Source of the DNA: Candidatus Saccharimonadales bacterium
Lineage (GTDB): Bacteria; Patescibacteriota; Saccharimonadia; Saccharimonadales; UBA4665
Direction of reading: 5' to 3'
Length of the DNA: 64,000 nt
Assembly (NCBI GenBank): GCA_036388415.1
Contig: DASVRW010000002.1
Coordinates: 186,001 to 250,000 of the forward strand
Both the position numbers and the translations under genes were made by a program. Numbering within the stretch: the first letter of the stretch is position 1; every line of letters begins with the position of its first letter. A model generated the notes under the pieces. It did no database searches, was not told the DNA's origin, and saw only the letters and a program-made list of their open reading frames with translations. Positions 3,807 through 20,944 of this stretch are shown piece by piece.

Positions 3807-4796
3807 TTAAATTAATCCACGATTCACAAGATTCCAGTAGTGTTGGCCAAGTACGGTAAGTTCGCAGGACTTACTTTCCATTGCTGCATTCCACATGTGT
3901 GGTGTTCCTACTGGACGGAGTAGATTAACTTTAATATATCTTTGCAAAATAGCAAATATAGCTGTATTAGTTGAATTTGGAACGGGTACATTAGCTTTTG
4001 CGTCATCTGAAGAACGTACCGGTTCAAACGTCGGATCAAGAGCAAATTCAAAATCAGCTGTTGGAAAATGTGTAGTTATCGCTTGCAAATCGGTTAATGC
4101 GATTGGAGGCTCTGCAGTACGCAGAGAAACAAAAGTCTTAACATTTGTTTTAAATACCGGGCGTTGAGCCCATGTACCTAATGATTGATCAACGTGTGCG
4201 TAAATGCTTCCCGGCGTTACATCGCCAAGAAGGTTTCCTGCAGCCCCATTTAGAGCATCGACAAACAAATTAGTAAAAACACCAGATCCTCCACCTGGAG
4301 TTTCCATGGCGTATTGGTCGGCTGTCGATGCTGACAAAATCGTAACACCATCTTTTATTTCAGCAAGACCAGTAACTAACGCATTGTTACCGGCAATGCC
4401 TCCATGGCAACTATCAAGTATAATTACCTTATTTCGCGCTGGAGATTGATTTGCTAGTGTCATTACTTCACTTAGTGCCAATCCATCATCACCGGATCGA
4501 TCGTCACTAGCACAAAGGTAGCCGCCTACATCTTCTATGTATCCATGACCGGCAAAATAAAATAAAGCAATTTCACTATCGTCTGCAAAAAGTTCTCGCA
4601 CCGCATCTTTAAGCTGCTCTCGGCTGATGGCGCTTCCGGCATCATTGCCGGTTAGGAGCTGAGGAGTAGCGAAGTTCAATGTCCCATCGGAGTGTCGTTC
4701 TAGTATGGCTTTTACGGCATGAGCATCGTTTACGCACCCACTCAGGTTACCTATTCTCTCATAAAAATCGATGCCTACAATTAAAGCCTTACGCAT
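3807..4796 (-). CDS. Caspase-like (C14) protease with C-terminal sensor-like domain
   Basis: Of 329 residues, the N-terminal 200 or so form a caspase/metacaspase domain: [10 protein letters not shown] at 3-12, catalytic histidine H84 in YFAGHGY and catalytic cysteine C130 in ILDSCHGG. The last ~110 residues are a separate domain with FALDPTFEP near 250 and a compact C-terminal block rich in Trp, Tyr and Leu. The ATG overlaps the stop of the TIR gene by one base (TAATG), so the two are made together. Known biology: in type IV Thoeris, a TIR enzyme makes a cyclic ADP-ribose-type signal that activates a caspase-like protease. The pair here has that composition; the C-terminal domain as ligand sensor is inference. 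Confidence 0.8.
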
Positions 4797-5173
4797 TATA
4801 GAGAATCAATGAAATTACTAATGTTTGCATCAGACCATGTATACGTGGTTACTCCGCTGATTGTTGTCCGATCTGCGCTGTATGCCCAGATTCCTCGCAC
4901 AGGCGTGCTCTCCTCTTTTGCACATTCGATTTCCCATTTTTGACCTTCGGATGTAAGAGAGTTTTTACTTACTAGGACAATAACACCGTCGGATCGACGG
5001 ATTCTCGTACGAACACGTTCCTTCCATTCTTTATCGTATGCTTGCTTTACGGACATATCGATAAATTCGAATGGTTGCCTGGGATGTAGCGATTGACCCT
5101 TTAAAAAGTCACGCTGATGCTCATCTTCAATTGCAAAAGCTACAAATATAATTTTCTTATCATTGTCAGACAT
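4796..5173 (-). CDS. TIR-like (ThsB-type) signalling protein
   Basis: A 125-residue single domain starts with [13 protein letters not shown] at 6-18, the beta-strand A and early loop of TIR-like (DUF1863/ThsB) proteins. A central [14 protein letters not shown] strand is at 62-75 and W80-E81-I82-E83 supplies the expected glutamate on the following helix. Stand-alone TIRs of this length are the infection-sensing NADase of Thoeris systems. It is first in a two-gene operon with the caspase-like effector, with a strong AAGGGGG ribosome site. Conservation of the Glu suggests an active enzyme. Residual doubt is between type IV Thoeris and a relative. Confidence 0.8.
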
Positions 5174-6440: not shown

Positions 6441-7709
6441 ATGTCGGAAACATTGGAAATCAAACAAGTCGGCGTGTCATTGTTAAATCCCGCACCGTAT
6501 AACCCAAGAAAATGGAGCGAACATTCGATCCGTCAATTGACTGAAAGCATTAAGCGCTTTGGAATGGTCGATCCGATTATCGCCAATAGCGCTACTATCC
6601 GCAAGAACATTGTTATTGGCGGCCACTTCAGACTCAAAGTTGCCAAAGACCTCGGCTATACCCTGGTACCGGTGGTTTATGTTGATATTCCGGATGAGAA
6701 TCGTGAAAAAGAATTGAACCTACGACTTAACCGTAATACCGGTGAGTTCGATCTTGAGCTTTTAAAGCAATTTGATGTCGACCTTTTGCTCGACGTTGGC
6801 TTTGATGATAGCGACCTCGGCGACATTTGGAATGATGCGTTGGAAACCGATGACGATAGCTTTAATCAGGAAAAAGCCGTCAAGCAAGCTGAAGGCACTG
6901 ATATCAAACTCGGTGACATGTTTCGACTTGGCAGCCACCGGCTAATATGCGGCGACTCGACTGATCCGACCGTTATTACTAAGCTAGTAAGCACTGATCG
7001 CCCCGCTATTTTTTATAGTGATCCGGTCTACAATATCAAACTTGATTATAGCAAAGGTATTAACACCGGCGGCAAATATGGTGGTTCAGCCAAAGACCAT
7101 AAATCAGATAATGAGTATAAACAATTTCTGCAGGCTGCGCTGACGGCCGCGATGCCAGTCTTGGCCGAAGACGTCCATGTATTTATGTACTGCGACCAGA
7201 ACTACATTGGCTTACTGCAATCACTTATGCAGGAAAATAATCTTAAGAACCGGCGCGTCTGCCTATGGATCAAGAACAGCTTCAACATGGTGCCAAAGGT
7301 AGCTTTTAATAAGGCCTACGAACCCTGCGTTTATGCGACTCGTGGTAATCCGTATCTATCGGATACCAGTAAAAACCTGACAGAGATTATTAATAAAGAC
7401 ATATCACCCGGTAACCGGACTATCGATGATATTACGGATCTATTTGACATCTGGCTGGCTAAACGTGAATCAGCACAGGAGTACCAGCACCCAACGCAGA
7501 AACCGGTAACCTTGCATGAAAAGCCGCTCAAACGCTGCACGAAAGTCGGCGATATGGTGCTTGATGTTTTTGGCGGCTCAGGTTCAACGTTGATTGCCTG
7601 CGAGCAAATGAAGCGTGTGGCCCTACTTAGTGAAATCGATCCGGTATTTTGCCAGGTCATCGTTGACCGTTGGCAAGCGCTAACTGGCAAAAAGGTAGTA
7701 CAGCTATGA
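6441..7709 (+). CDS. ParB-domain DNA methyltransferase, motif IV altered
   Basis: The protein (422 residues) joins two domains. Residues 8-135 are a ParB/Srx-like domain (NPAPYNPRKWS, then GGHFRLKVAKDLG), and residues 155-422 are an N6-adenine/N4-cytosine methylase of the beta order, with motif IV at 194-197 and motif I DVFGGSGST near 375-383. Motif IV reads DPVY instead of DPPY, which may weaken catalysis. This architecture is typical of phages and integrative elements. It overlaps the next methylase by 4 nt (ATGA), so all four genes to 10372 form one tightly coupled operon. Role: modification of element DNA. Confidence 0.85.
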   Translation: MSETLEIKQVGVSLLNPAPYNPRKWSEHSIRQLTESIKRFGMVDPIIANSATIRKNIVIGGHFRLKVAKDLGYTLVPVVYVDIPDENREKELNLRLNRNTGEFDLELLKQFDVDLLLDVGFDDSDLGDIWNDALETDDDSFNQEKAVKQAEGTDIKLGDMFRLGSHRLICGDSTDPTVITKLVSTDRPAIFYSDPVYNIKLDYSKGINTGGKYGGSAKDHKSDNEYKQFLQAALTAAMPVLAEDVHVFMYCDQNYIGLLQSLMQENNLKNRRVCLWIKNSFNMVPKVAFNKAYEPCVYATRGNPYLSDTSKNLTEIINKDISPGNRTIDDITDLFDIWLAKRESAQEYQHPTQKPVTLHEKPLKRCTKVGDMVLDVFGGSGSTLIACEQMKRVALLSEIDPVFCQVIVDRWQALTGKKVVQL

Positions 7710-8446
7710 AATCCGGTGACATATACCGGCTTGGCAGCCACCGCTTAGCCTATGGCAGTTCTAGTGACACGGACCTACTTGCCCGGCTTGTAAGCGCAGA
7801 TAAAGTAGCCATGGTCCTAACTGACCCGCCCTACGGCGTCTCATATGTTGAAAGCAAACGCGGTATTGCTAGTTTGGCGACCGATAAGGTTATCGCTAAT
7901 GACAATATCGGAGACGAAACGGAATACAAGGCGTTCAGCGTGGCATGGATCGAGGCGGTTAAGCCGCACCTGGCCCGCAAGAATAGTATCTATATCTTTA
8001 ATTCGGACAAAATGCTGGTGCCGACTGTTGAAGCTATGAAGTCTACCGGCTGTAAGTTTGCTCAACTTCTTATCTGGGCTAAAACTCATGCGGTGGTTGG
8101 CCGCTTGGATTACTTGCCTCAGCACGAGCTAATTCTGTATGGCTGGTATGGCACCCATACTTTTAAAAAGAGCAAAGATAAAAGTATTCTGGTCTATCCC
8201 CGGCCGAATCGGAGCAAACTGCATCCGACTATGAAGCCAGTCGGTTTATTACGGCGGCTTCTACTTAATAGCTCGAGCGTCCGAGATATTGTCTTTGACG
8301 GCTTTGCCGGGAGTGGCAGTACTCTATTAGCTTGTGAACAGACTAACCGCCAATGCTTGGCAGTCGAGCTTGACCCGGAGTACTGCCAAGTAATCATTGA
8401 CCGTTGGGAAAGACTGACTGGCCAAACAGCGGAGCTGCTAATATGA
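7706..8446 (+). CDS. DNA modification methylase (N4/N6 type)
   Basis: A longer frame exists, but the ATG at 7706 overlaps the previous stop (ATGA), giving 246 residues. It begins SGDIYRLGSHRLAYG, the same lead-in as the preceding enzyme's catalytic domain, has intact motif IV DPPYG at 40-44 and motif I FAGSGSTLLACEQ near 207-219, and ends with the common VIIDRWERLTG helix. It is a beta-class methylase without its own ParB domain. The similarity to its neighbour suggests duplication with division of labour, the intact copy probably supplying catalysis. Confidence 0.88.
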   Translation: MKSGDIYRLGSHRLAYGSSSDTDLLARLVSADKVAMVLTDPPYGVSYVESKRGIASLATDKVIANDNIGDETEYKAFSVAWIEAVKPHLARKNSIYIFNSDKMLVPTVEAMKSTGCKFAQLLIWAKTHAVVGRLDYLPQHELILYGWYGTHTFKKSKDKSILVYPRPNRSKLHPTMKPVGLLRRLLLNSSSVRDIVFDGFAGSGSTLLACEQTNRQCLAVELDPEYCQVIIDRWERLTGQTAELLI

Positions 8447-8856
8447 GCCGCAACCAGAAAGCCGATAAGAAGCAACTACTGTTACGCCTTGAAAAGACAC
8501 CGATTGTAGAGGTGGCCTGCCAACAGGCCAAAGTCCCCCGCAGTACCTATTACCGCTGGCGTAAGGCAGATAAAGCATTTGCCGAAGCCTGCGATGAGGC
8601 GCTTGAGGAAAGTATTGGCCGAATCAATGATCTAGCTGAATCGCAGCTCATCAGTGCGATTAAGGAGCAGAATATGGGGGCTATAACATTTTGGCTAAAA
8701 CACCACCACAAACGCTATACTACCCGCGTCGAGCTAACGGCCCGGACTGACCAGGATGAAGCCTTAACGCCAGAACAAGCGGCTACGGTTCGGGCTGCCC
8801 TGCAGCTGGCTGGACTTCTAAGTAATGAAGTAAGCCTGAAAGATATCAATGAATAA
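8443..8856 (+). CDS. Phage terminase small subunit-like protein
   Basis: From the ATG at 8443 (ATGA overlap with the methylase) it has 137 residues. Residues 18-40 form a helix-turn-helix with PRSTYYRWRKADKAF, the form found in phBC6A51-type terminase small subunits and insertion-element HTH proteins. A helical middle and an acidic C-terminus follow. Its position immediately before the large terminase, overlapping it by 8 nt, makes TerS the best call. It would recognise the packaging site and hand DNA to TerL. Confidence 0.78.
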   Translation: MSRNQKADKKQLLLRLEKTPIVEVACQQAKVPRSTYYRWRKADKAFAEACDEALEESIGRINDLAESQLISAIKEQNMGAITFWLKHHHKRYTTRVELTARTDQDEALTPEQAATVRAALQLAGLLSNEVSLKDINE

Positions 8857-10372
8857 TCAACTACCGGCTGAACTATGGCAACATATTCAGTCTGACCGTA
8901 AGGTGCGAATGAAGACCGCCGAGCAAAGCCATGAATGGTTTTTTAGCTTATATCTGGCGGACTATGTATCGTATCCGACTGCGCCGTTTCAACAGGAGAT
9001 ATTCAATTTAACAGAGCGCACGGACATCAACCATATAGTGATCGTTGCTTTTCGTGGCTCCGGTAAGTCGACAATGGTTACCTTGTCATATCCAATTTGG
9101 TCCATCCTTGGAGTGCAGCAAAAGAAGTTTGTATTAATACTAAGCCAAACTCAAAACCAAGCTCGTATGCACTTGGCGAATATTAAACGAGAGTTTGAAA
9201 ATAATGAGCTACTACGTGCGGATTTTGGCCCGCTTGAAGAAGAAAGCGATGAATGGGGATCATCTTCGCTTGTCTTAAGCCAATATGGCGCCCGTATTAG
9301 TGCCGCATCAACCGATCAGAGTATCCGCGGTATTCGGCATGGTAAACACCGCCCTGACCTTATTATATGCGATGACGTTGAAGATCTATTATCCGTGAAG
9401 ACTTATGAAAATCGTAATAAGAACCATAATTGGTTGACCGGTGAAGTCATACCTGCCGGAGACAACAATACTAAGCTTGTTATGGTCGGCAACCTATTAC
9501 ACGAAGATTCCCTCCTCATGCGCGTCAAAGCCCGGTTTGAAGCCGGTGACATGGATGGCGTCTTTAAAGCGTACCCGCTTGTCTCTGATGATGGTCAAGT
9601 GCTATGGACTGGTAAATATCCAGATATTGCCGCCGTCGAAGCCGCCCGACGAAAGCTTGGTAATGACCGCGCTTGGCTTCGTGAATATATGCTCAAGATA
9701 ATACCCGATGAGGATCAGATTATATTACCGCAATGGATTAAATACTATGATAATCTGCCGTCTAAGGATTTTAATACACTTCGTTACAAGGCGGTTGGCA
9801 TTGACCTGGCCATATCCCAGCGCACTACCGCCGACTGTACAGCCATGTTATCTGCTGAGATACATGGTCTCGGCGAAAATATGAAAGTGTATATTCTGCC
9901 GGATCCGGTCAACGCCCATATGTCCCATTTAAAAACGCTCGAAAAGGCTCACGAGCTAGTTGCTAAGCTTGGTACAAAAAGCAGCGTGAAGTTGTTTGTT
10001 GAGGAAGTTGGTTACCAGGGATCGGTTATTGAACAATTAACAAAAGAGAATTATAAGGCCGAAGGCGTAAAGGTACGCGGCCAAGACAAGCGAGCGCGAT
10101 TGTTATCGATCAGTCATCTGGTTGAAAGCGGCAAAGTTGTCTTCCCTCGATACGGTGGCCACCAACTTCTCCAGCAGCTATTAGGTTTTGGTAGCGAACG
10201 ATATGACGATTTGGCAGATGCATTCTCGATATTACTCGAGAAGGTATTGGAGCATGATCACAGGCCTTCAGGAGGAACAGTCACATGGGGCACGGGTTTT
10301 TGGGATAATTATTGGAAGCACCGAAATGCTTTTGAAAGTAGCCGCTGGGAGGGACGAAGACATGGCTGGTGA
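8849..10372 (+). CDS. Phage terminase large subunit
   Basis: This 507-residue protein carries both TerL activities. The ATPase has Walker A AFRGSGKST at 67-75 and Walker B LIICDDVED at 171-179. The RNase H-like nuclease has VGIDLAIS near 316-323 and the final acidic motif YDDLADAFS near 465-475. TerL cuts concatemeric DNA and drives it into a capsid. No portal, capsid, protease or tail gene follows; the operon ends here and a structured non-coding region begins. Length and motif spacing are normal, so the gene looks functional. Confidence 0.93.
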   Translation: MNNQLPAELWQHIQSDRKVRMKTAEQSHEWFFSLYLADYVSYPTAPFQQEIFNLTERTDINHIVIVAFRGSGKSTMVTLSYPIWSILGVQQKKFVLILSQTQNQARMHLANIKREFENNELLRADFGPLEEESDEWGSSSLVLSQYGARISAASTDQSIRGIRHGKHRPDLIICDDVEDLLSVKTYENRNKNHNWLTGEVIPAGDNNTKLVMVGNLLHEDSLLMRVKARFEAGDMDGVFKAYPLVSDDGQVLWTGKYPDIAAVEAARRKLGNDRAWLREYMLKIIPDEDQIILPQWIKYYDNLPSKDFNTLRYKAVGIDLAISQRTTADCTAMLSAEIHGLGENMKVYILPDPVNAHMSHLKTLEKAHELVAKLGTKSSVKLFVEEVGYQGSVIEQLTKENYKAEGVKVRGQDKRARLLSISHLVESGKVVFPRYGGHQLLQQLLGFGSERYDDLADAFSILLEKVLEHDHRPSGGTVTWGTGFWDNYWKHRNAFESSRWEGRRHGW

Positions 10373-10413
10373 TATGGATAGGCTTGACAGCGTATAGCAG
10401 GTATAATCAATAT

Positions 10414-10523
10414 TGTCTAGATCAGAGTAATTCAGTATTGCGCGAGCAGCCTCGCGTGGTGATGCCATAAAAATGGGCAGCCATGCGAAAAAGTAGGCAT
10501 CACTGCTTGCTCTGATCTAGACA
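10414..10523 (+). ncRNA. Structured non-coding element, three-way-junction-like
   Basis: Perfect 14-bp arms (10414-10427 and 10510-10523) enclose two further hairpins: CGCGAG/CTCGCG at 10441-10456, and GTGATGCC/GGCATCAC at 10459-10503 with an inner ATGG/CCAT. The whole could fold as a closed multi-branch RNA or extruded DNA. A TATAAT sits just upstream (10402-10407) with a TTGACA only 12 nt before it, so the promoter is uncertain. A segment inside (about 10468-10483) is also complementary over 16 positions to 10532-10547, giving an alternative fold. Function is unknown; strand is assumed from the flanking genes. Confidence 0.6.
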
Positions 10524-10557
10524 GTCTAGTGTGGCTGTCCATTTTTATATATCGGGC

Positions 10558-10592
10558 AGCCTCCAGCGCTCACAATAACTTAAACGGAGGCT
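10558..10592 (+). promoter_or_regulatory. Hairpin sequestering the ribosome site of the DUF4352 gene
   Basis: AGCCTCC (10558-10564) is perfectly complementary to GGAGGCT (10586-10592), which contains the Shine-Dalgarno sequence 8 nt before the ATG at 10599. When paired the start would be masked. Together with the switchable helix upstream this resembles a translational control leader. Confidence 0.6.
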
Positions 10593-10598
10593 AATCCC

Positions 10599-11174
10599 AT
10601 GGATAGCACAAAAAAGCGAAACTTTTTCGCACGACATAAAATATTAACCGGGTTCCTAGTTCTTGTCGGGCTAGGAGTGATTATTTCTGCGGCTGGTAGT
10701 GGCGGATCAAACACCCAAACGGCTTCGAATAGTGGATCAAGTAACGCAGCTCAAACAGACGACAAAGCAAAGGTAGCAAAACTAAATGAAACAGCCCGAG
10801 ACGGCAAATTTGAATTCACCGTTACCAGCATCGAATGCGGCAAAGCGTCAGTCGGTACCAATGAGTACTTAACGAAGCAGGCGCAAGGTCAATTCTGCCT
10901 GGCTAATGTTAGCGTCAAGAATGTCGGCACCGAAGCCCAAACGTTTGATAGCTCAAGTCAGTATCTTTATGATGCAGCCGGGTCCAAGTTTTCCGCCGAT
11001 GGCACTGCATCACTATATGCTAACCCTGAGGGCAGTACCTTCCTAAATCAGATCAATCCAGGTAATAGCGTTACAGGTGCAATTGCCTTCGACTTGCCAA
11101 AAGACAAAACGCCGGTCACGGCAGAGCTACACGACAGTGCCTTCTCGGGTGGTGTAAAAGTCAGCTTACAATAG
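10599..11174 (+). CDS. DUF4352 membrane-anchored surface protein
   Basis: The protein (191 residues) has a basic start, a transmembrane anchor at about 15-33 (LTGFLVLVGLGVIISAAG), a Gly/Ser/Asn/Thr/Gln linker to about 60, and an immunoglobulin-like DUF4352 domain with the typical FTVTSIECG, FCLANVSVKNVG and IAFDLPKD strands. Such proteins sit on the cell surface; binding partners are unknown. Within this island it may be a lysogeny or superinfection-type cargo gene, but that is inference. It has its own structured leader and terminator, so it is regulated apart from the terminase operon. Confidence 0.8.
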   Translation: MDSTKKRNFFARHKILTGFLVLVGLGVIISAAGSGGSNTQTASNSGSSNAAQTDDKAKVAKLNETARDGKFEFTVTSIECGKASVGTNEYLTKQAQGQFCLANVSVKNVGTEAQTFDSSSQYLYDAAGSKFSADGTASLYANPEGSTFLNQINPGNSVTGAIAFDLPKDKTPVTAELHDSAFSGGVKVSLQ

Positions 11175-11191
11175 AAGCACGAAAATCATAA

Positions 11192-11220
11192 AATAGTCGT
11201 CTTCATGGCGACTATTTTTA
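11192..11220 (+). terminator. Rho-independent terminator
   Basis: AATAGTCG and CGACTATT form an 8-bp stem with a 9-nt loop, and the stem runs into TTTTTA. It closes the DUF4352 gene. Confidence 0.8.
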
Positions 11221-11262
11221 TTATGCTGGACTTGTTGAAACACTTGCGGCATTACTTGTGTT

Positions 11263-12534
11263 ATGAACACAGAACCCGAACTTAAATACTGCTTGTATGC
11301 TCGCAAGTCCAGTGAATCAGATGAGCGCCAAGCTATGAGTATAGATTCTCAGTTAGCTGAAATGAGAGCCTTGGCTAGCAGTAGTGGACTCAATGTAGTA
11401 TGCGAATTGCAAGAAAGTTACTCGGCCAAAGAGTCGGGTAAGCGGCCAGTTTATAATCAATTGCTTAAAGGGTTACGGGGTGACGAGTATAATGCTGTGC
11501 TTACATGGGCACCCGATCGTCTATCTAGAAATGCCGGTGATCTCGGCTCTATAGTAGATCTAATGGACCAGGGTAAATTGTTGCATATTAAGACGTACTC
11601 ACAAACATTTACTAATAATCCAAATGAGAAGTTCTTGCTTATGATCCTTTGTTCGCAGGCAAAGCTTGAGAATGACAACAAAAGCATCAACGTCAAACGA
11701 GGTATTAAAACGAAGTGTGAAATGGGCTGGCGGCCAGGGGTCGCACCGCTCGGCTACATGAATCGGGCATTCGGTGGTATCAAGGACATCGTTCCTGACC
11801 CTGACCGAGCCGATATCATTACTGAAATGTTCCGTAAGGCTGGCCAGGAGGGCTGGAGCGGCCGGAAACTGAAAGACTGGCTTGACGGCCAGGACTTCCG
11901 CAACCGATCTGGCTTGCCGGTCATGTTGAGCCAGGTTCTTGCCATCCTCATTAACCCTTTCTATTATGGCGAATTCCAGTATCCAGAGTCGCCTGGCGGC
12001 AAATGGTTCAAGGGCGCGCATAAACCGCTTGTTTCTAAAGAATTGTTCGACCTCGTACAGCAAACGCGCGGTGTAAACAAAGGCGTGTGGGGATCGAAGC
12101 AGTTTGCTTTCCGCGGCTTAATATCATGTGGCCAATGTGGTGCAAGCTTTACGGCGCAGGAAAAGTTTAAAAAGCTGAAAAACGGAGACTATAACCGTCA
12201 CGTTTACTATAGTTGCACTCGACGCGTTGATCCTAACTGCAAGGAAAAATATATCAACGAAACAAACTTCTGCCTGATACTCCAAGACTTTATTGAGCAG
12301 AATTACAACGGAATACGTATCAGCAGTAAGTTAAGGGCTAAAGTCGAACGACACTACAGTGCTACCAAAAGTTTGTTTGCTCATTACAAACTTGAGCAGC
12401 CCCTCGACAAGCCGTTCATCGAATATTCGAGATATGTACTGGACTGTGGATCAGAAAGCGAAAAAACGGCTCTGGCAGCTGGAATTGAAACAAAACTTAA
12501 GCTCACTTTTGGAGCTCTCGCTTTTGTAAAGTAA
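11263..12534 (+). CDS. Large serine recombinase (integrase)
   Basis: The protein has 423 residues. The N-terminal resolvase domain starts CLYARKSSESDERQAMS with the catalytic serine at about 16-17, and the arginine motif DRLSRNAGD lies near 85-93. A recombinase domain follows (PGVAPLGYMN, then ILINPFYYGEF), then a zinc ribbon with CGQCGASF near 290 and YYSCTR...C near 317-325, and a helical end. These enzymes integrate and excise phages and mobile islands at short attP/attB sites. It sits at the right edge of the phage-like island, next to where an attachment site is expected; I could not identify att sites by eye. Confidence 0.92.
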   Translation: MNTEPELKYCLYARKSSESDERQAMSIDSQLAEMRALASSSGLNVVCELQESYSAKESGKRPVYNQLLKGLRGDEYNAVLTWAPDRLSRNAGDLGSIVDLMDQGKLLHIKTYSQTFTNNPNEKFLLMILCSQAKLENDNKSINVKRGIKTKCEMGWRPGVAPLGYMNRAFGGIKDIVPDPDRADIITEMFRKAGQEGWSGRKLKDWLDGQDFRNRSGLPVMLSQVLAILINPFYYGEFQYPESPGGKWFKGAHKPLVSKELFDLVQQTRGVNKGVWGSKQFAFRGLISCGQCGASFTAQEKFKKLKNGDYNRHVYYSCTRRVDPNCKEKYINETNFCLILQDFIEQNYNGIRISSKLRAKVERHYSATKSLFAHYKLEQPLDKPFIEYSRYVLDCGSESEKTALAAGIETKLKLTFGALAFVK

Positions 12535-12582: not shown

Positions 12583-12966
12583 TTACTTTTCAGGCTCACT
12601 TTTCATATTTTGAAATACTTTCCATCCTTCTTCCGTTCCATCTTCAATGTCCTCTTCGTGTCCAAAGTAGAGTGAAGACGCTTGAATAGTTTCTTTACCG
12701 TATTCTTCAAATTGTTCAGTTTTCCAATTAATAGGCGTTTCAGAATCGATAACTTCAAAAACTTCTGATGGCATCCACCAAGGCAATTCGCTGTCGTCAG
12801 TAACGATAAAGTAGAATTTACCCAAGTCATTGATACGAACACCATAACTTGTATACTCTTTATCAATCGTGATTTCAAGATTACCGTTTTGGTCCTGCGT
12901 AAATGCGAACTTTCTCAATTTAACACTTAGATCATTTATGTTATTTTTGATACACTTCAGTTTCAT
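12583..12966 (-). CDS. Candidate immunity protein for the RHS toxin
   Basis: The 127-residue acidic cytosolic protein has no known motif that I can name; WWMPSEVFEVID near 58-69 is distinctive. Its ATG overlaps the RHS stop codon by 4 nt (ATGA), the classic toxin-immunity order in polymorphic toxin loci, and its acidity fits the strongly basic toxin tip it would have to bind. Function is assigned from position only. Low similarity to neighbours is expected since toxin-immunity ends are exchanged between strains. Confidence 0.6.
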   Translation of the reverse strand: MKLKCIKNNINDLSVKLRKFAFTQDQNGNLEITIDKEYTSYGVRINDLGKFYFIVTDDSELPWWMPSEVFEVIDSETPINWKTEQFEEYGKETIQASSLYFGHEEDIEDGTEEGWKVFQNMKSEPEK

Positions 12967-15900
12967 CGATATCTCTTTATCTTCACCTGTTTTACAGCTT
13001 TCTTAGACGAGTTGTAGAAGTAATGTACTATAACTTTCTTACCCTTATTTGTCAAAGGAACATGCCTGTACTCCATTTTTCGCCACCCATCTTTGGCTGA
13101 GTATCTAGCATCTTTAATTTTTCCTTTCATTATCTCTATGCCTACTTTTGGATTTGCACGAACAGTCTGCATAGCTAGCTTTTCACTAAGATTTCTAGCC
13201 GCTACTGTAGCAGCTTTCTTGGCTACATGTTTTGCGGCGTACTGAACTGCTATTCTCCCCGCAAATATCGCTACTGGTATTAAGAAAGCTGCTTGTCCGT
13301 CTAGATCTTCTTTGTTGATTGGATCAGCTGGGTAAATGTATCGATTTTCTACCCCGCCCTCTATTGGATCGACCTGTAAAAAGCGACCAAGGCTTGCAAT
13401 ATAGATCCTGGCACCCATTTCCTGAGGCTTAAGAGTAAAGTCTTTTTCAGTTTGCTTTTGATGCTTACCGACCCAGCCATAGCTATTGCCAGCGGTAGTG
13501 TTGTCTGCAGCAGTCGAGGACAACAATTGACCGAATGGATCATATTGATATGATCCGGTACTTGTACCATTAGTATTTGTTGTTGCCATGACGTCACCAT
13601 GTATATTCGGTAGACTGTAGGTGTCTTTTTTAGCAGCATCGGTTTCAGTTGGTCGGATAGTAAGTAGAACGCCACCAGGAAGTGCCTGGTACTTCTCAAC
13701 GACCGTCCAGCTAGTATTACGGATGAAGTCAGCGGTATCGCCAGTTCCAGTGTAGCCAGAAAAGGTTTGTTTTTGATTTAATCCATAATTGTCTTGACTG
13801 CGGTATTTAATGCGGTTTTGCGCATCGCGACTGAAGAAGGCTTCGACGCCTCCATTATTCTCAATTATCGCGCTATTGCGATCGCTTGAATCGTAACGGA
13901 ATTCTGTTCTGGTCGTGCCACTGCCAAGGAAACGGGTATTGCCATGGGCGTCGTACTCGGCATTTGTTACAGTAGGATCTGTCGAACTCACAAGCTGATC
14001 GGCATTGTTGTAGCAGTAGTTAGTTGTAGTGGTCGTACCACCATTAGTACGGGTCGCGCTTGTTCGGTTAGCGTTTTTCCCGGCGTTTGCGTTGTCGCCA
14101 ACGGCGCAACCGGTAGCGGTACCAAAGCCATAAGTGAACTGCTGCCCTGCAACCGTTGCACTTACTAATCTACTGGCTTTGTCATAGCTATAGCTTTTCG
14201 CTTGGCCTAGCTCTGTCCCGGAGATTATCTGACCAGACTGCGAACGAGTTACCGAATCGCTGACTTGAGATGTGCTGTCGCCAAGAGTGTAAGTAACATT
14301 GTTACTACGTCCAAGTTGGTCGTAACCGATACTGACAGCGGATGATCCGGCAGTCGGATATGTTGCGCTGTTCAAGCGGCCAAAGGCGTCGTAGCCAGCA
14401 TAAGATAGTACTACTGAATCGAGTTTCTGCTCTGTCAAGCGATTAAAATTATTGTAAACGTATTCTTCAAGACCAACCGGGCTGGTTTTAGAGGTGAGTC
14501 GGCCAATTGCATCGTAAACATATTGTGTAGTATTTACGTACGAGTCTGAGTAGGTAACGGTTCGACCTAGCAAATCAAATGTCGTTTGTATAGTGCCCTC
14601 AGGATCACTCGTGTTTGTAATCAGTGGGTTTCCGCCTACTGCCCAGCTATTAGTAACTGTTCTGGCTGATGCACCATTGATGGCTGGTATCTGCACCTGT
14701 GTGACGCGGCCACGATCATCATAGGTTGTACATGTCCACGGGTCAGTGTTATAGCGGATAGCTACAACCCGACCTGCGTCATCGTAGACTGTTTCAGTAG
14801 TGCGAGCAGCTCCGGCTCCGGCAAGACCCGGCTCAGTCTTAAGCTTAAGCATGCCGCCTTGCTTAAATACTTCAGTAGCAGGTGTGCACGGGTTATCAGC
14901 TGTTTCAGTCGCACCAAAGTAGCCGTAACTTGTGTTGGTGCCGCCAGGCAGTGTCTTGCCAATCATGCGCATTAAGCTCCCAGTTGCGCCTTGTGCTTCG
15001 TAGCTAGAGGAGGTGTTATAGTTAAGCCCGCCCGGATCAACAATACTACTTTGAGCGAGGCCCAACTCTGGACTGGCGCCGTAATTGGTATTTGTCTGTG
15101 TGTCACCGACTTGAGTGCTAGAATCGAAATTCTTTTGAGAAGTTGTTAAGCCGTATCGGGGTGTCAGCAGTGATCCTAATGCAGCTGTTTCGGATCCTCC
15201 CGGCGAAGTTTTGTAAAGAATGAGTTGAGCATCGTTTTCGGTTGTATTCTTATTGTAATACTCAACTCGGATAGGGTGATAGCTGTTAGCAACGGTGTTA
15301 TTAATCGTAACGTTCATATTCATAGCGTGAGAGCGTTGGCCGCCGTCTTCCCAGTCATTGATGATAAGCTTGTCATCAACGTATAAACGGACACCGTCGT
15401 CGCTATGTACCCTGAACGTATGTACGCCTACTTCATTGAGCTTGACATCACCACTTAAGCGTACGCCCCAGCCAGTATTGCCGTTGCCAGTATCGACCGG
15501 TGTCGGTACGGTTGAACCCCACGTCCGGTTGATATCACCGTTCGAGCCGCCAATACCTGTCTGATGGTTCTTAGGTGCTCCGCTCAATGTTTTAGTGCTG
15601 GATTTGTAGTTATAGTATGTAGCAGCAAGACTATTAATGCCTTCATCATAGCCACTTTGATTACGCGGTACTTGTGATACATAAGCAGCTAATGGCTTTC
15701 TATCTGCTCCAAACCAAGCGGACGGTGCTGCGCCGTATCTATCAGTCAACCGATCAGCATAATCATAGATATGCATTGTTTTAAGACCGACTGGGTCGGT
15801 GGTAGACAGGATCATGTCTTTAACTGGATCCCACTCGGTCGTAGTCATCAAGTTTGCTAAATCAGTATCTTGCAAGGTCCTGAAGGTACTGTCGTATTCA

Positions 15901-18900
15901 ACCTTACGGTTAAAGCCGACTGGTTCCGTGGCACCATCAACTTTTACGAATGAGTATCCGGCACTTGCTACGCCACTCTGAGGATCAACGCTGTTGTATT
16001 GATAGGAATGAGCTTGCCTGGTAGCTCCCGGTGTTGCCTCAGGATATTTGACTTTTGTAGCCCGACCAATCAAATCGTAGCTTATGGTCGTATTAAGCAA
16101 ATCACTTTGAGTTCTTACTCCAGCAGATACTGCATCGTTTGCTAGTGCGGTTCGCATCTGCGTAAGTAGCCCAGTTCCAGCTGAATCATAGCCAAATGAT
16201 TGTATCTCATTGCCAGGCTCAACAATTCGTGCGAGTTGCGGCTTACCAGTAGGATCGTTCTGATAGACAAATTGAGTTACACGGTTATCGGAGGTCTTTA
16301 AGGCACATACCATATTTGTCGGTACGGCATCGAAACCTGATGGCACAGCTGGACAAGCCGATTCACCAGCGTAGATCAATTGTGCAAAACGCGAAGTGTC
16401 CACAGAATCGCTTAACTTCAATAGATGGGTGATGTTAGGGTTAGCAGATCCGGGGCTTGTACCGTAATCATAGTTTATGACGGCTGCTTTGCGGCTATCG
16501 ACTGGATTAGTGACCGAGCGAATAGTACCATCGGAGTTAAAGACGTAGGTTTTTCCATCCGAATCCTGCAAAGTTAAGCTGCCATCGGCGTTACGAGTCA
16601 ATATGCCTTCTTCATTTGGCGGAGCAACATAAGCATTGTTAACGTATTTGTATTCATGAGTTTCTCCAGTTGCGTCACGTAAGACTACGCTGCTGTTATT
16701 AATTGCAGCAAATTCGTAAGTTAAGTCACCATCTTCATCTGCACTTAGCTTCCAACCGTCCGGTAAGGCCGGTACTTCTTGTGTAAGCATTTCGGCTGGT
16801 ACCACCCGTTCAGCTCCCGATGAATCTATCATATGTAGCTCTGCGGTAGCACCACCGGCGTTTTCATAGTACTCGACAGTAATTGGATATGACTGACCGG
16901 CGTTTAATTGAACGGTGTTTGATTGTGTCGTAATGCCAGGGTTATCAGCCCAGTTATTGAGTATCGGCGTAGTCGAATTATTAAGGAATACCCGACTGCC
17001 GTCATCAGCTACTGTCTTAAATTTGTAGTTATCGGTGACTTGAGGAGTGATATAGCCGCTCCAGCGAACCATGAAGTCGTCTGAAGGCGCACCTGGAATT
17101 GGACTACCGCCTCCCCAGTGGAATGATACCTGACTGTCATTACGTGTTAAGAAAAGTCGGTCATTAGCATTTGCAGGAAAGCTTGGTGAGGGGCCATTAT
17201 TGTCGCTGTAGTAATACCGTCCTGTTAATCCGTACTTGTCACTCACCTGCTTTACGCCGGTTTGAAGCCAGTTACTTAGCACGACCCGTTCACCATTTGG
17301 ATTAGATTGTGCATTGGCAAACTGAGGACCCTTTACATACAATTTCATTCTTGCACCTTGCTCCCAGTCAAAGTACTCAATCTTTATAGGAATAATTTGT
17401 CCGGCAGTCAGCTGTACTGAATCTGTACCGAATCTCAATGTCGGTGAACTATAACCCCAGCTGTCCAGTTTCGCGGTCGTTTCATTATTCACAAATATAC
17501 GAACGCCATCATCAGCATCAGCACCAAACTTATATGTTCCATCTAGCGGAGCGACAAAGTAACCTTGCCAACGAGCTAAGAAATGATCATTGCTAATCGT
17601 GCCCGGTTGCGGCGATCCGCCCAACCAATCAGAGTCCACAGCACCGTCAACACGAGTTACGGCCGGTGCGGTGCTTGGGAAGCAGGCACAGTTGGCCGCA
17701 TCATTCCAATACTGGGCAGTCAGCCCATTACGTGAGCGTACTGGGGAATTGTATTCTAGTCCTAAGCCTAGTGAGCCCCCTAATGCACTAACAGAATGAG
17801 TGTTATTAGAAGTAGTTACATTGCCAGTTGCCAAATCAGTTGAAACCCCTTCAACAGTGTCGAAGGCTTGCGTAGCGTCTTTGCCATTGCGCATATCAAC
17901 CCTAAACGACCGCACTTCGCTGTCTTTCCAAGAACCTAGCCGACCAGTTGCAGGATTGCCAGCATCTACTTGATCCCACGTTTGCACTTTCCAGTAATAA
18001 GTTGTTCCGTCTTTCAATGCGTTATCCGGTACCGTCCACTGCGGTGAATCGAGCCAATCAGACGATACGACCATACCACTATTTCCATCATTGCCAGTCG
18101 TAACGCGGAAGCGATACTTAACCGCTTGTCCGTCAGGATCGGTCGCGTAGCCACTTGTTAGAAACGGTTGTACATTAACGACCGTTGCTTTATCTGCCGG
18201 AGCAGTTAAAGCACTAGCAGCTGGAAGATTGTCATAAGTAAAAGTGACACGGGTGTCTTCATAATCAAAAGTCTTAAATGTATAGTTATCACTTTCATCA
18301 CCATTAACCATCATCCAGAAGCCGAAATCGCCGCCTGCAATCGCTTTACGGTAGAGCTCAGTCACGTCCATGTCACCTTGGTAACCGATGTTAGCACTGG
18401 CCGTACCATAGCTTCCGTCAATACCATGGTAATTGAATGCACCTAAGTGGCGTGCGTAGAACATACGTCCGTCGTATGTACCTTTAGTAGATATGGAGGA
18501 ATCATTTGGCTCAACCATTTGAAGGTGCAGAGAGGCATTTAATAAGTACTTATTAGGATCTTGTAACTGATCAAAATTAGCGTGCGTAGCAAACCGCCAG
18601 ATATAGTACGGTCTGTTGTTACCAGCGCTGTTGCTGCAGCCCATACCTGGATTGCATACGTAGCCATCGTGGCGGTAGTTCACATAATTGAAGCCATTGT
18701 TTGATACAAAGCTTGGGTCGACAATTACCGGAAATGATTTCTTATCTAATTTTGAAAACCAATCTTTGTCTACATCGACGGTTATTTCATTGTTGCTAAT
18801 TGTCTGTTTAACATATGGTTCGGATCCGACAATACCCTGGTCGGCAAGGCCAACAGTAGGTGGTGCTATATTAAGGTCAGCCATTTCACCGTCCAATTTA

Positions 18901-19754
18901 TAATAGCCAGGTTGATCAGGATTTGGACTTAAGCTTGCGCCATCTAATTTAAATTTGAAGTTGGTTTGACTTTCCGGCTTACTAATAACGATGCTTTCTT
19001 TTAGCTCGGAGGCATTAACTTCATACTTTACGTCTACCCCAGGCCAAACATTCTTGTAAGTAACAATTTGGTCAGAGCCGCTGTCACTTACTTCAGGCTC
19101 GCTATCTTTGCCGCCTATTGGAGTTAACTTTGCAGTTTGATTGCCCTGCTTTACATTAACGCCCTCAGTTTCAGTTAATTTCTTAAAAGTTACCTGCCAC
19201 TTGTTGGCTTTTGTTTTCCACTCGTTCTTTGACTTGTCTTTTTCGAGAGTCATATCAATGTCTTGCCACTTGCCGTCTTTTTGATAACTTGTCGGTAAAA
19301 CACTTTGCTCGACGGTTTTGCTGCCATCTTTATTAAGGAAGGTCTTTTGAGTTGGACTGCGATCTTCGTCGAGTACTTTAACTTTTGTAAGATCCCGTGG
19401 TTTACCGTTTTGAAGTACCTTACGGGTCTCGCTCAACTCGTTCTTCATTTTATCGGGAAGTTTAGAGACTTTCTTAGCGTCGCCCAGATCGACCGGGACG
19501 GCACCTGAAGCGACATTGTTCAAGGCTTGAGGCGTTCGGGCTTGCTTCTGCTGATAATCATAAAGAAATGAACCTAACCCAACTGTAAGGCTTGAAAAAG
19601 TAAAAACGGTTGCAACTGTTACTGCGGAAAAGCGCATATTAAAGTCTTTGATTTTACGCTCATTAAGCTTGTATTTTTTGTGTAATAAAAAAAGCGCCGT
19701 CAATTTTAACGGCGCTTTTGCAATTGCTTTGAATTTTTGGCCAAAACCTCTCAT
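12963..19754 (-). CDS. Giant WapA/RHS-like surface polymorphic toxin with three PA14 domains
   Basis: This 2263-residue protein has a basic N-terminus and a membrane anchor or signal at about 42-65. A WapA-like region to about 520 includes a DNRLRE-type module. PA14 carbohydrate-binding domains lie at about 671-818, 838-988 and 1371-1525. RHS/YD repeats lie between and after them, and the core closes at about 2125-2150 with DPIEGG and IYPADPIN. The last ~110 residues are a basic, distinct tip (GWRKMEYRH, VIVHYFYN) that should be the toxin; its fold is not recognised, an RNase is plausible. Family knowledge: RHS shells encapsulate and deliver such tips by contact. The start could instead be the ATG at 19631, because a terminator-like hairpin lies within the first codons. 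Confidence 0.88.
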   Translation of the reverse strand: MRGFGQKFKAIAKAPLKLTALFLLHKKYKLNERKIKDFNMRFSAVTVATVFTFSSLTVGLGSFLYDYQQKQARTPQALNNVASGAVPVDLGDAKKVSKLPDKMKNELSETRKVLQNGKPRDLTKVKVLDEDRSPTQKTFLNKDGSKTVEQSVLPTSYQKDGKWQDIDMTLEKDKSKNEWKTKANKWQVTFKKLTETEGVNVKQGNQTAKLTPIGGKDSEPEVSDSGSDQIVTYKNVWPGVDVKYEVNASELKESIVISKPESQTNFKFKLDGASLSPNPDQPGYYKLDGEMADLNIAPPTVGLADQGIVGSEPYVKQTISNNEITVDVDKDWFSKLDKKSFPVIVDPSFVSNNGFNYVNYRHDGYVCNPGMGCSNSAGNNRPYYIWRFATHANFDQLQDPNKYLLNASLHLQMVEPNDSSISTKGTYDGRMFYARHLGAFNYHGIDGSYGTASANIGYQGDMDVTELYRKAIAGGDFGFWMMVNGDESDNYTFKTFDYEDTRVTFTYDNLPAASALTAPADKATVVNVQPFLTSGYATDPDGQAVKYRFRVTTGNDGNSGMVVSSDWLDSPQWTVPDNALKDGTTYYWKVQTWDQVDAGNPATGRLGSWKDSEVRSFRVDMRNGKDATQAFDTVEGVSTDLATGNVTTSNNTHSVSALGGSLGLGLEYNSPVRSRNGLTAQYWNDAANCACFPSTAPAVTRVDGAVDSDWLGGSPQPGTISNDHFLARWQGYFVAPLDGTYKFGADADDGVRIFVNNETTAKLDSWGYSSPTLRFGTDSVQLTAGQIIPIKIEYFDWEQGARMKLYVKGPQFANAQSNPNGERVVLSNWLQTGVKQVSDKYGLTGRYYYSDNNGPSPSFPANANDRLFLTRNDSQVSFHWGGGSPIPGAPSDDFMVRWSGYITPQVTDNYKFKTVADDGSRVFLNNSTTPILNNWADNPGITTQSNTVQLNAGQSYPITVEYYENAGGATAELHMIDSSGAERVVPAEMLTQEVPALPDGWKLSADEDGDLTYEFAAINNSSVVLRDATGETHEYKYVNNAYVAPPNEEGILTRNADGSLTLQDSDGKTYVFNSDGTIRSVTNPVDSRKAAVINYDYGTSPGSANPNITHLLKLSDSVDTSRFAQLIYAGESACPAVPSGFDAVPTNMVCALKTSDNRVTQFVYQNDPTGKPQLARIVEPGNEIQSFGYDSAGTGLLTQMRTALANDAVSAGVRTQSDLLNTTISYDLIGRATKVKYPEATPGATRQAHSYQYNSVDPQSGVASAGYSFVKVDGATEPVGFNRKVEYDSTFRTLQDTDLANLMTTTEWDPVKDMILSTTDPVGLKTMHIYDYADRLTDRYGAAPSAWFGADRKPLAAYVSQVPRNQSGYDEGINSLAATYYNYKSSTKTLSGAPKNHQTGIGGSNGDINRTWGSTVPTPVDTGNGNTGWGVRLSGDVKLNEVGVHTFRVHSDDGVRLYVDDKLIINDWEDGGQRSHAMNMNVTINNTVANSYHPIRVEYYNKNTTENDAQLILYKTSPGGSETAALGSLLTPRYGLTTSQKNFDSSTQVGDTQTNTNYGASPELGLAQSSIVDPGGLNYNTSSSYEAQGATGSLMRMIGKTLPGGTNTSYGYFGATETADNPCTPATEVFKQGGMLKLKTEPGLAGAGAARTTETVYDDAGRVVAIRYNTDPWTCTTYDDRGRVTQVQIPAINGASARTVTNSWAVGGNPLITNTSDPEGTIQTTFDLLGRTVTYSDSYVNTTQYVYDAIGRLTSKTSPVGLEEYVYNNFNRLTEQKLDSVVLSYAGYDAFGRLNSATYPTAGSSAVSIGYDQLGRSNNVTYTLGDSTSQVSDSVTRSQSGQIISGTELGQAKSYSYDKASRLVSATVAGQQFTYGFGTATGCAVGDNANAGKNANRTSATRTNGGTTTTTNYCYNNADQLVSSTDPTVTNAEYDAHGNTRFLGSGTTRTEFRYDSSDRNSAIIENNGGVEAFFSRDAQNRIKYRSQDNYGLNQKQTFSGYTGTGDTADFIRNTSWTVVEKYQALPGGVLLTIRPTETDAAKKDTYSLPNIHGDVMATTNTNGTSTGSYQYDPFGQLLSSTAADNTTAGNSYGWVGKHQKQTEKDFTLKPQEMGARIYIASLGRFLQVDPIEGGVENRYIYPADPINKEDLDGQAAFLIPVAIFAGRIAVQYAAKHVAKKAATVAARNLSEKLAMQTVRANPKVGIEIMKGKIKDARYSAKDGWRKMEYRHVPLTNKGKKVIVHYFYNSSKKAVKQVKIKRYR
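19685..19718 (-). terminator. Terminator-like hairpin inside the 5' end of the RHS frame
   Basis: On the minus strand AAAGCGCCGT and ACGGCGCTTT form a 10-bp stem with an 8-nt loop followed by seven T, a textbook intrinsic terminator. It lies about 12-23 codons after the first ATG of the RHS gene, so it either attenuates that gene or shows that translation begins downstream at 19631. Confidence 0.65.
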
Positions 19755-20159: not shown

Positions 20160-20226
20160 TGGTCACTCCTTTTGACTGCTTGGTCTGGCTCCGGGGACTG
20201 GGCTCGAACCAGCGACCTAGTGGTTA

Positions 20227-20795
20227 CATATTATCCACTATTTTCATAGCGGCATGGACTATCTCATCATCCTTATTGCTAAGGATGCAGGGCGCTTATG
20301 AAGGATTATTGCTTAAGGTCTCACCTTCTAGTCTCTGAACCTTCCAAGCGTTGAATGTAATATTCAGTGCCTCTAGCTTGGCTTGGCTGCGGATCAGCAT
20401 ATCCCGTATAGGACGTAGCTTTCCCGACAATTCACCCTGTTTTCACTGCATGATTACTCATACAGGCTGCACTTCGACGATACCGGCATGCACTTCTCGG
20501 TGACAATTAGCGCAAATAAGGACGCATTTATCTGCTTCTTCGACAACTTTATTCCAGGCACGCGTTAATCCGCCTGATGACACACCGAATAATTTCTGAT
20601 TCGGATCAATATGATGAAGGTCAAGAGCATCGATACATTTATTGTAACCGCACAGCATACATTCCCCGCCTTTATACTCGACTAGCTTCTTGCGAACTGC
20701 CCTGCGGCGTTTCGTAACAGCTTTTTTGAGATATTCTGCGCGGTGAATGTATAATCGGCGTTCTGGCATACTTCTATAAGTATACCGTATTTCGT
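20227..20795 (-). ncRNA. Group I self-splicing intron in the tRNA-Asn anticodon loop
   Basis: This 569-nt intron has the classic core elements in order on the minus strand: P/Q (AATTGTCGGGAAAGC at 20418-20433), the GCAGCCAAG segment (20382-20390), R (GTTCAGAGACTAGA at 20327-20340) and S (GAGATAGTCC at 20256-20265). GACTA of R pairs with TAGTC of S as P7. The 5' exon ends in U and the intron ends in G, as required. A GCAGT at 20445-20449 can pair with the exon end GCUGU with a U-G wobble at the splice site, so the ORF would lie in the P1 loop. Core type resembles the tRNA introns of subgroup IC. Confidence 0.9.
20458..20769 (-). CDS. Intron-encoded HNH homing endonuclease
   Basis: The 103-residue protein lies entirely inside the intron, starting 26 nt after the 5' splice site. 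A basic N-terminus (KRRRAVRKKLVEYKG) precedes an HNH core: zinc cysteines C37 and C40 in CMLCGYNKC, the catalytic region LDLHHIDP at 49-56, and CVLICANCHREVHAG near 81-95 with two more cysteines. Such enzymes cut intronless alleles so that the intron is copied in. The small size fits a minimal HNH nuclease. Expression requires transcription through the tRNA gene, as no obvious separate promoter is seen. Confidence 0.88.
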   Translation of the reverse strand: MPERRLYIHRAEYLKKAVTKRRRAVRKKLVEYKGGECMLCGYNKCIDALDLHHIDPNQKLFGVSSGGLTRAWNKVVEEADKCVLICANCHREVHAGIVEVQPV

Positions 20796-20944
20796 ACAGC
20801 CACCCGCTCTACCACTGAGCTACCCCGGACTATGCCAGAGAATTATTCACTACTACACTGCGAATTGTTAATGAACCCTTATGACTAGGGTGATTATATC
20901 CGACCTCTCCCTATGGTGCAACTAATTGTAAGATGCCAAACGGC

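What the first reader, a model, noticed from the sequence alone, without database searches (positions are those of the whole stretch)
12583..19754. 2263-residue WapA/RHS toxin with three PA14 modules and adjacent immunity gene
The protein devotes more than a tenth of a percent-scale reduced genome's coding to one surface toxin. PA14 carbohydrate-binding modules inside an RHS shell suggest binding to a host or rival surface before delivery. The basic ~110-residue tip has no recognised toxin fold, and the ATGA-coupled acidic gene is its likely antidote. It may act in the epibiont-host contact.
Basis: partly seen in the sequence, partly recalled or inferred. Interest (0 to 1): 0.7.

Follow-up and report, generated by a model that had tools for sequence, protein, structure and literature searches.

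The report
Saccharibacterial RHS/WapA-type toxin with immunity gene
An ultra-small epibiotic bacterium carries a very large secreted "polymorphic" toxin whose warhead is swapped between relatives and is paired with a matching antidote gene; the system is of a known kind, but the warhead–antidote family is unnamed and a terminator-like hairpin hidden in the toxin's signal-peptide codons is unexpected.

Summary
Window 12963-19754(-) encodes 2263 aa with three PA14 domains, YD/RHS repeats and an Rhs-associated core. A basic 109-residue tip follows, overlapping by ATGA an acidic 127-aa gene. In the order, 20 of 392 genomes match the C-terminal core. Core identity to relatives in the family is 43-68% up to DPINKEDLDG (residue 2153); every relative then has an unrelated tip (27 others examined), including an orphan core-plus-tip fragment 637 kb away in the same genome. 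Among patescibacterial genomes searched, the full tip occurs only here. It has relatives at the C-termini of CdiA-like and RHS toxins of Proteobacteria and Leptospira; in Leptospira and Providencia the same immunity family follows it. In another family of the class, a 52-53% identical immunity gene survives behind a truncated tip remnant. A 2018 paper already reported a 2487-aa RHS/PA14 toxin with immunity gene in a saccharibacterium that appears to be one relative here, so this is a new member of a known kind. Likely action: secretion, contact, release of a nuclease-type tip against other bacteria; catalysis untested, fold search inconclusive. Unexpected: an intrinsic-terminator-like hairpin in the signal-peptide codons, shared by four orthologues and absent from 117 other genes sampled.

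The parts
12963..19754 (-). RHS/WapA-type polymorphic toxin, 2263 aa
19690..19719 (-). intrinsic-terminator-like hairpin (13 pairs, then T-run) inside codons 12-22, the signal-peptide region; shared with nearest orthologues
19575..19631 (-). hydrophobic segment, residues 42-60: signal peptide or anchor
   Evidence: hydropathy
17322..17735 (-). PA14 module 1, residues 674-811
   Evidence: E 2.6e-20
16800..17237 (-). PA14 module 2, residues 840-985
   Evidence: E 4.2e-26
15186..15539 (-). PA14 module 3, residues 1406-1523
   Evidence: E 5.9e-19
14430..14576 (-). YD/RHS repeats (best-scoring stretches), residues 1727-1775
13293..13544 (-). RHS-associated core, residues 2071-2154; conserved up to DPINKEDLDG
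12966..13292 (-). variable toxin tip, residues 2155-2263: hydrophobic lead-in, then a domain from about residue 2188 with conserved G, D, GW.KME, HY..N and K
12583..12966 (-). immunity gene, 127 aa, acidic, ATGA overlap with the toxin

Best explanation
A polymorphic RHS (WapA-like) antibacterial toxin of a saccharibacterium. The N-terminal signal region takes the protein across the membrane (inferred). PA14 modules on and in the YD/RHS region give surface attachment (inferred). The RHS core houses the C-terminal tip (inferred from solved RHS proteins). On contact the roughly 80-residue basic domain is released into a neighbouring bacterium and kills or arrests it, most likely as a nuclease (probably RNase); the nearly invariant His and Lys of the HY..N...D.K motif are candidate active-site residues (inferred). 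The ATGA-coupled acidic protein neutralises the tip in the producer and its kin (inferred from synteny in three phyla). The tip-immunity cassette was exchanged horizontally at the conserved DPxNxxDLxG border (shown by comparison).
For: Three PA14, RHS repeats and core. Core conserved at 43-68% but tips unrelated in relatives, including an orphan Tox-REase-9 fragment in the same genome; relatives' tips include GIY-YIG and Tox-REase-7. Full tip found in 1 of 392 order genomes; 20 of 392 carry a match to the core. GC falls from 0.46 (shell) to 0.40 (tip) and 0.35 (immunity). Tip homologues sit at the extreme C-terminus of CdiA/DUF637 and RHS toxins, nearly always with an overlapping or adjacent small gene. 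A P0002-type protein follows the tip also in Leptospira noguchii and Providencia rettgeri. In G415 an immunity homologue (52-53% identity; codon position 3 differs 62% against 33 and 30%) follows a truncated tip remnant, E 5e-7.
Against: No direct evidence of toxicity or catalysis. Tip model confidence is low (mean pLDDT 56) and structural matches are weak; RelE and HigB at Z about 2 tie with cystatin and other unrelated folds. The second Pro of the DPxG...DPxG autoprotease motif is absent (DLxG in most of this lineage), so release by self-cleavage is uncertain. PA14 binding is inferred from domain identity only.
Confidence: 0.85

Rival explanations
1. The protein is mainly an adhesin or host-attachment protein; the tip is a vestigial or structural end and the small gene is unrelated.
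For: Three PA14/GLEYA modules fit an adhesin, and the shell recurs in several saccharibacterial genera.
Against: Tips are swapped at a fixed border and carry named nuclease domains in relatives; the same tip-immunity pair recurs in other phyla.
Confidence: 0.06
2. The toxin is aimed chiefly at the actinobacterial host of the epibiont (predation or nutrient extraction, as reported for WapA of Bacillus subtilis against B. megaterium, PMC5566331) rather than at rival bacteria.
For: Epibiotic lifestyle of Saccharibacteria (PMC10633639 abstract); WapA delivers a tRNase into prey (PMC5566331 abstract).
Against: A cognate immunity gene and a remnant of the cognate cassette in another saccharibacterial family fit competition among epibionts; the shell is patchy, 20 of 392 genomes, which does not fit an essential host-interaction factor.
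Confidence: 0.2
3. The tip acts other than as a nuclease (for example on translation factors or NAD).
For: No fold assigned; fold search inconclusive; no Pfam, NCBIfam or PDB sequence match.
Against: Small, very basic, predicted helix-helix then three strands, invariant His and Lys: layout compatible with BECR-type RNase toxins, though not proven.
Confidence: 0.4

Closest known systems
Candidatus Teamsevenus rhizospherense 2487-aa RHS/YD/PA14 toxin with immunity gene (PMC6031116)
   Same: Same architecture and, by all signs, the orthologous shell: G080 is a single 1,450,269-base contig with a 2486-aa protein 45% identical to the window's, carrying three PA14 stretches.
   Different: Different tip and immunity gene (Imm8-like, just below cut-off); the passages read do not describe tip swapping or cassettes.
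WapA of Bacillus subtilis and other Gram-positive bacteria
   Same: Large secreted RHS protein with variable toxin tip and downstream immunity gene (general knowledge); WapA delivers a tRNase (PMC5566331 abstract).
   Different: PA14 modules present here (WapA cell-wall-binding repeats from memory, not tested); tip family different; organism an epibiont.
CdiA-CT/CdiI contact-dependent inhibition toxins (DUF637 type)
   Same: Tip homologous to the C-termini of CdiA-type toxins of Photorhabdus, Pantoea, Proteus, Providencia and others.
   Different: Shell and secretion route differ; most gammaproteobacterial copies use another immunity family (A5); its relation to P0002 was inconclusive.
RHS toxin on a Leptospira noguchii plasmid, annotated polymorphic toxin type 10
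   Same: Ends in the same tip family and is followed by a P0002-type gene.
   Different: Unrelated organism; about 21% identity in the tip alignment; the Ntox10 match covers only a region before the tip.

Membership tests
RHS/WapA polymorphic toxin | YD/RHS repeats and Rhs-associated core | tested here: met
   PF05593 5.8e-17, TIGR03696 5.2e-11, both over cut-off
RHS/WapA polymorphic toxin | Conserved shell with variable C-terminal tip at a fixed border | tested here: met
RHS/WapA polymorphic toxin | Immunity gene directly downstream, co-inherited with the tip | tested here: met
   ATGA overlap; same pair in Leptospira and Providencia
RHS/WapA polymorphic toxin | DPxG...DPxG autoprotease motif | tested here: inconclusive
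   First motif present as DPIEGG; second is DLDG here and mostly DLxG in the lineage, Asp kept but Pro lost; consequence for cleavage unknown
RHS/WapA polymorphic toxin | Secretion signal at the N-terminus | tested here: inconclusive
   Hydrophobic segment 42-60; relatives have signal-peptide-like N-termini; no signal predictor available
RHS/WapA polymorphic toxin | Tip toxic, neutralised by cognate immunity protein | not testable with these tools
   needs expression
[quoted passage not shown]
   Low-confidence model with two helices and three strands; RelE/HigB Z about 2 among unrelated rows
PA14 domain | Profile match over curated cut-off | tested here: met
   three modules
WapA proper | WapA-type cell-wall-binding repeats | not tested
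   No specific profile run; only Pfam and NCBIfam hits as listed

The most novel reading that the evidence does not exclude
Saccharibacteria wage toxin-immunity warfare with one another through RHS shells whose cassettes recombine at a lineage-specific DPxxGG...DLxG border, and expression of the 7-kb toxin gene is gated by an intrinsic terminator embedded in its signal-peptide codons (translation- or factor-coupled attenuation), a control not described for polymorphic toxins as far as I know.
Probability: 0.3. Interest if true: 0.65.

Novelty: new member of a known kind. Interest (0 to 1): 0.42.

Why it matters
Saccharibacteria have tiny genomes and live on other bacteria, so a 7-kb weapon with exchangeable warheads in a patchy subset of genomes says that interference competition matters to them. 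The tip–immunity pair spans several phyla, has no family name, and is small enough to test directly. The orphan immunity gene with a toxin remnant in another family makes competition between epibionts testable. The conserved hairpin in the signal-peptide codons suggests an unexamined control of toxin expression.

Tried and rejected
Pfam, NCBIfam and PADLOC for tip and immunity: no family; the NF038340 (SAR2788) match was sub-threshold and covers only the hydrophobic lead-in. PDB sequence searches with the tip, a tip homologue, the immunity protein, and profiles of both families: nothing meaningful. Tip structure model with 14 sequences: mean pLDDT 56; Foldseek nothing below E 3.3; VIA rows at Z 3.4 and under, with monellin, cystatin, RelE and HigB mixed. 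Immunity model from a single sequence: pLDDT 40, not used. Homology of the two immunity families: hhalign probability 10%, E 0.003, inconclusive. Phage records: no tip or immunity match. Weak tip hits in G644 and G561 judged chance: no tip-like frame in the DNA read. The hairpin motif as a general feature of secreted genes: only one exact-pattern match in the own genome, and absent from the other 117 genes sampled. An internal promoter-like site for the immunity gene (13055-13027, 11 of 12) was found, but such sites are no more frequent than in shuffles (15 against 13.1).

Full report
Observation. The ORF, the three PA14 modules, the RHS repeats and core, the basic tip and the ATGA-coupled acidic gene are all present as described. 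The window is G000:C2:186001-250000 of a 1.142-Mb genome. Its family includes G080, a single contig of 1,450,269 bases with a 2486-aa toxin. These values match the complete 1.45-Mb genome and 2487-aa RHS/PA14 toxin reported for the saccharibacterium T. rhizospherense (PMC6031116). I therefore infer, without a name being given, that the window comes from a saccharibacterium.

Architecture. A hydrophobic segment lies at residues 42-60. PA14 modules lie at 674-811, 840-985 and 1406-1523. The best-scoring YD repeats lie at 1727-1775 and the Rhs-associated core at 2071-2154. The G080 and G071 orthologues also carry three PA14 stretches each, so the PA14 modules belong to the shell, not to the cassette.

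Tip swapping. In the last 140 residues before the border, relatives are 43-68% identical to the window; beyond DPINKEDLDG the tips do not align. A search of 392 genomes of the order found the core in 20, from 17 genera. I extracted 27 other tips; the best blastp match to the window tip had E 0.37 and lay in the hydrophobic lead-in. Relatives' tips include a GIY-YIG domain (just below Pfam's cut-off) and Tox-REase-7. In the same genome a 573-aa core fragment carries a Tox-REase-9 tip and a putative immunity gene, and a second RHS locus carries a row of truncated core-plus-tip cassettes. G022 carries several cassettes in tandem. Full-length tip: 1 of 392 order genomes. GC declines from shell to tip to immunity gene, consistent with recent acquisition.

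Relatives of the tip and immunity protein. Plasmid and genome searches found the tip at the extreme C-terminus of CdiA/DUF637-type and other toxins of Gammaproteobacteria and Alphaproteobacteria, nearly always with a small gene overlapping (-3) or just downstream. P0002 has relatives in Leptospira, Providencia and Deinococcus plasmids. In Leptospira noguchii and Providencia rettgeri it follows a toxin ending in the same tip family. Invariant positions across 13 tips include G, D, G (of GW), K, H and Y (of HY) and a C-terminal K. Most gammaproteobacterial copies use another immunity family; whether the two are distantly related is inconclusive.

A decayed cassette. G415, in another family of the class, has a P0002 homologue (52-53% identity) preceded by a frame matching residues 71-108 of the tip (51%, E 5e-7) with no toxin in front. 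Substitutions concentrate at third codon positions (62% against 33 and 30%), consistent with selection on the immunity protein. The next gene is related to a gene downstream of the G071 toxin. One case is suggestive, not proof, of acquired interbacterial defence.

Mechanism. Shown: modular architecture, swapping border, conserved tip–immunity pairing, presence of the pair in distant phyla (horizontal spread). Inferred: secretion, PA14-mediated attachment, delivery, nuclease action, neutralisation. The nuclease assignment rests on size, charge, predicted helix-helix-strands layout and invariant His and Lys; the model is of low confidence and the fold search is inconclusive. The second DPxG of the canonical autoprotease is DLDG here and mostly DLxG in this lineage, so self-cleavage may differ.

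A hairpin in the signal-peptide codons. A 13-pair hairpin followed by a T-run lies at 19719-19690, within translated codons 12-22. G071, G080 and G022 have hairpins in the corresponding codons. Synonymous codon shuffles reach the observed score in 0, 0, 1.9 and 0.7% for window, G071, G080 and G022, and no other 180-nt segment of the genes scanned has one. Among 120 genes in the loci read, only the three full-length RHS genes of this family have such a hairpin in the first 180 bases. More distant shells have it in a minority. It looks like an early intragenic terminator; its function is untested.

Comparison and verdict. The kind of system is known (WapA, CdiA, RHS toxins), and a member in Saccharibacteria was noted in 2018 (PMC6031116). 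New here, as far as the papers searched show, are the swapping border and cassettes in this lineage, the unnamed multi-phylum tip–immunity pair, the decayed cassette in another family, and the signal-peptide hairpin. Filed as a new member of a known kind.

Noticed in passing
window 20186-20824 (-): A tRNA gene, by its exons probably tRNA-Asn(GTT), interrupted by a group I intron (RF00028, 81.9 bits) that carries an HNH-type ORF (20458-20769); ARAGORN does not report the tRNA.
   Followed up: partly
window 3807-5173 (-): Caspase-domain protein (PF00656) overlapping a ThsB-like TIR protein (PF08937): looks like a Thoeris defence system with a caspase-like effector.
   Followed up: no
window 8404-12534 (+): Terminase small and large subunits and a large serine integrase (phrog_95), with a ParB/DNA methyltransferase fusion just before (6441-7709): prophage or phage-like remnant beside the toxin locus.
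   Followed up: partly
window 19690-19719 (-): Terminator-like hairpin inside the signal-peptide codons of the toxin gene, shared by the nearest orthologues and rare elsewhere.
   Followed up: partly
L009 12833-19428 (G000:C2:840832-847427): Second RHS gene (1045 aa) in the same genome, followed by two or more truncated cores with different tips and small putative membrane immunity proteins: a cassette array.
   Followed up: partly
L031 4125-5222: Truncated tip remnant, intact P0002 homologue and a second putative immunity gene in G415, another family of the class.
   Followed up: yes
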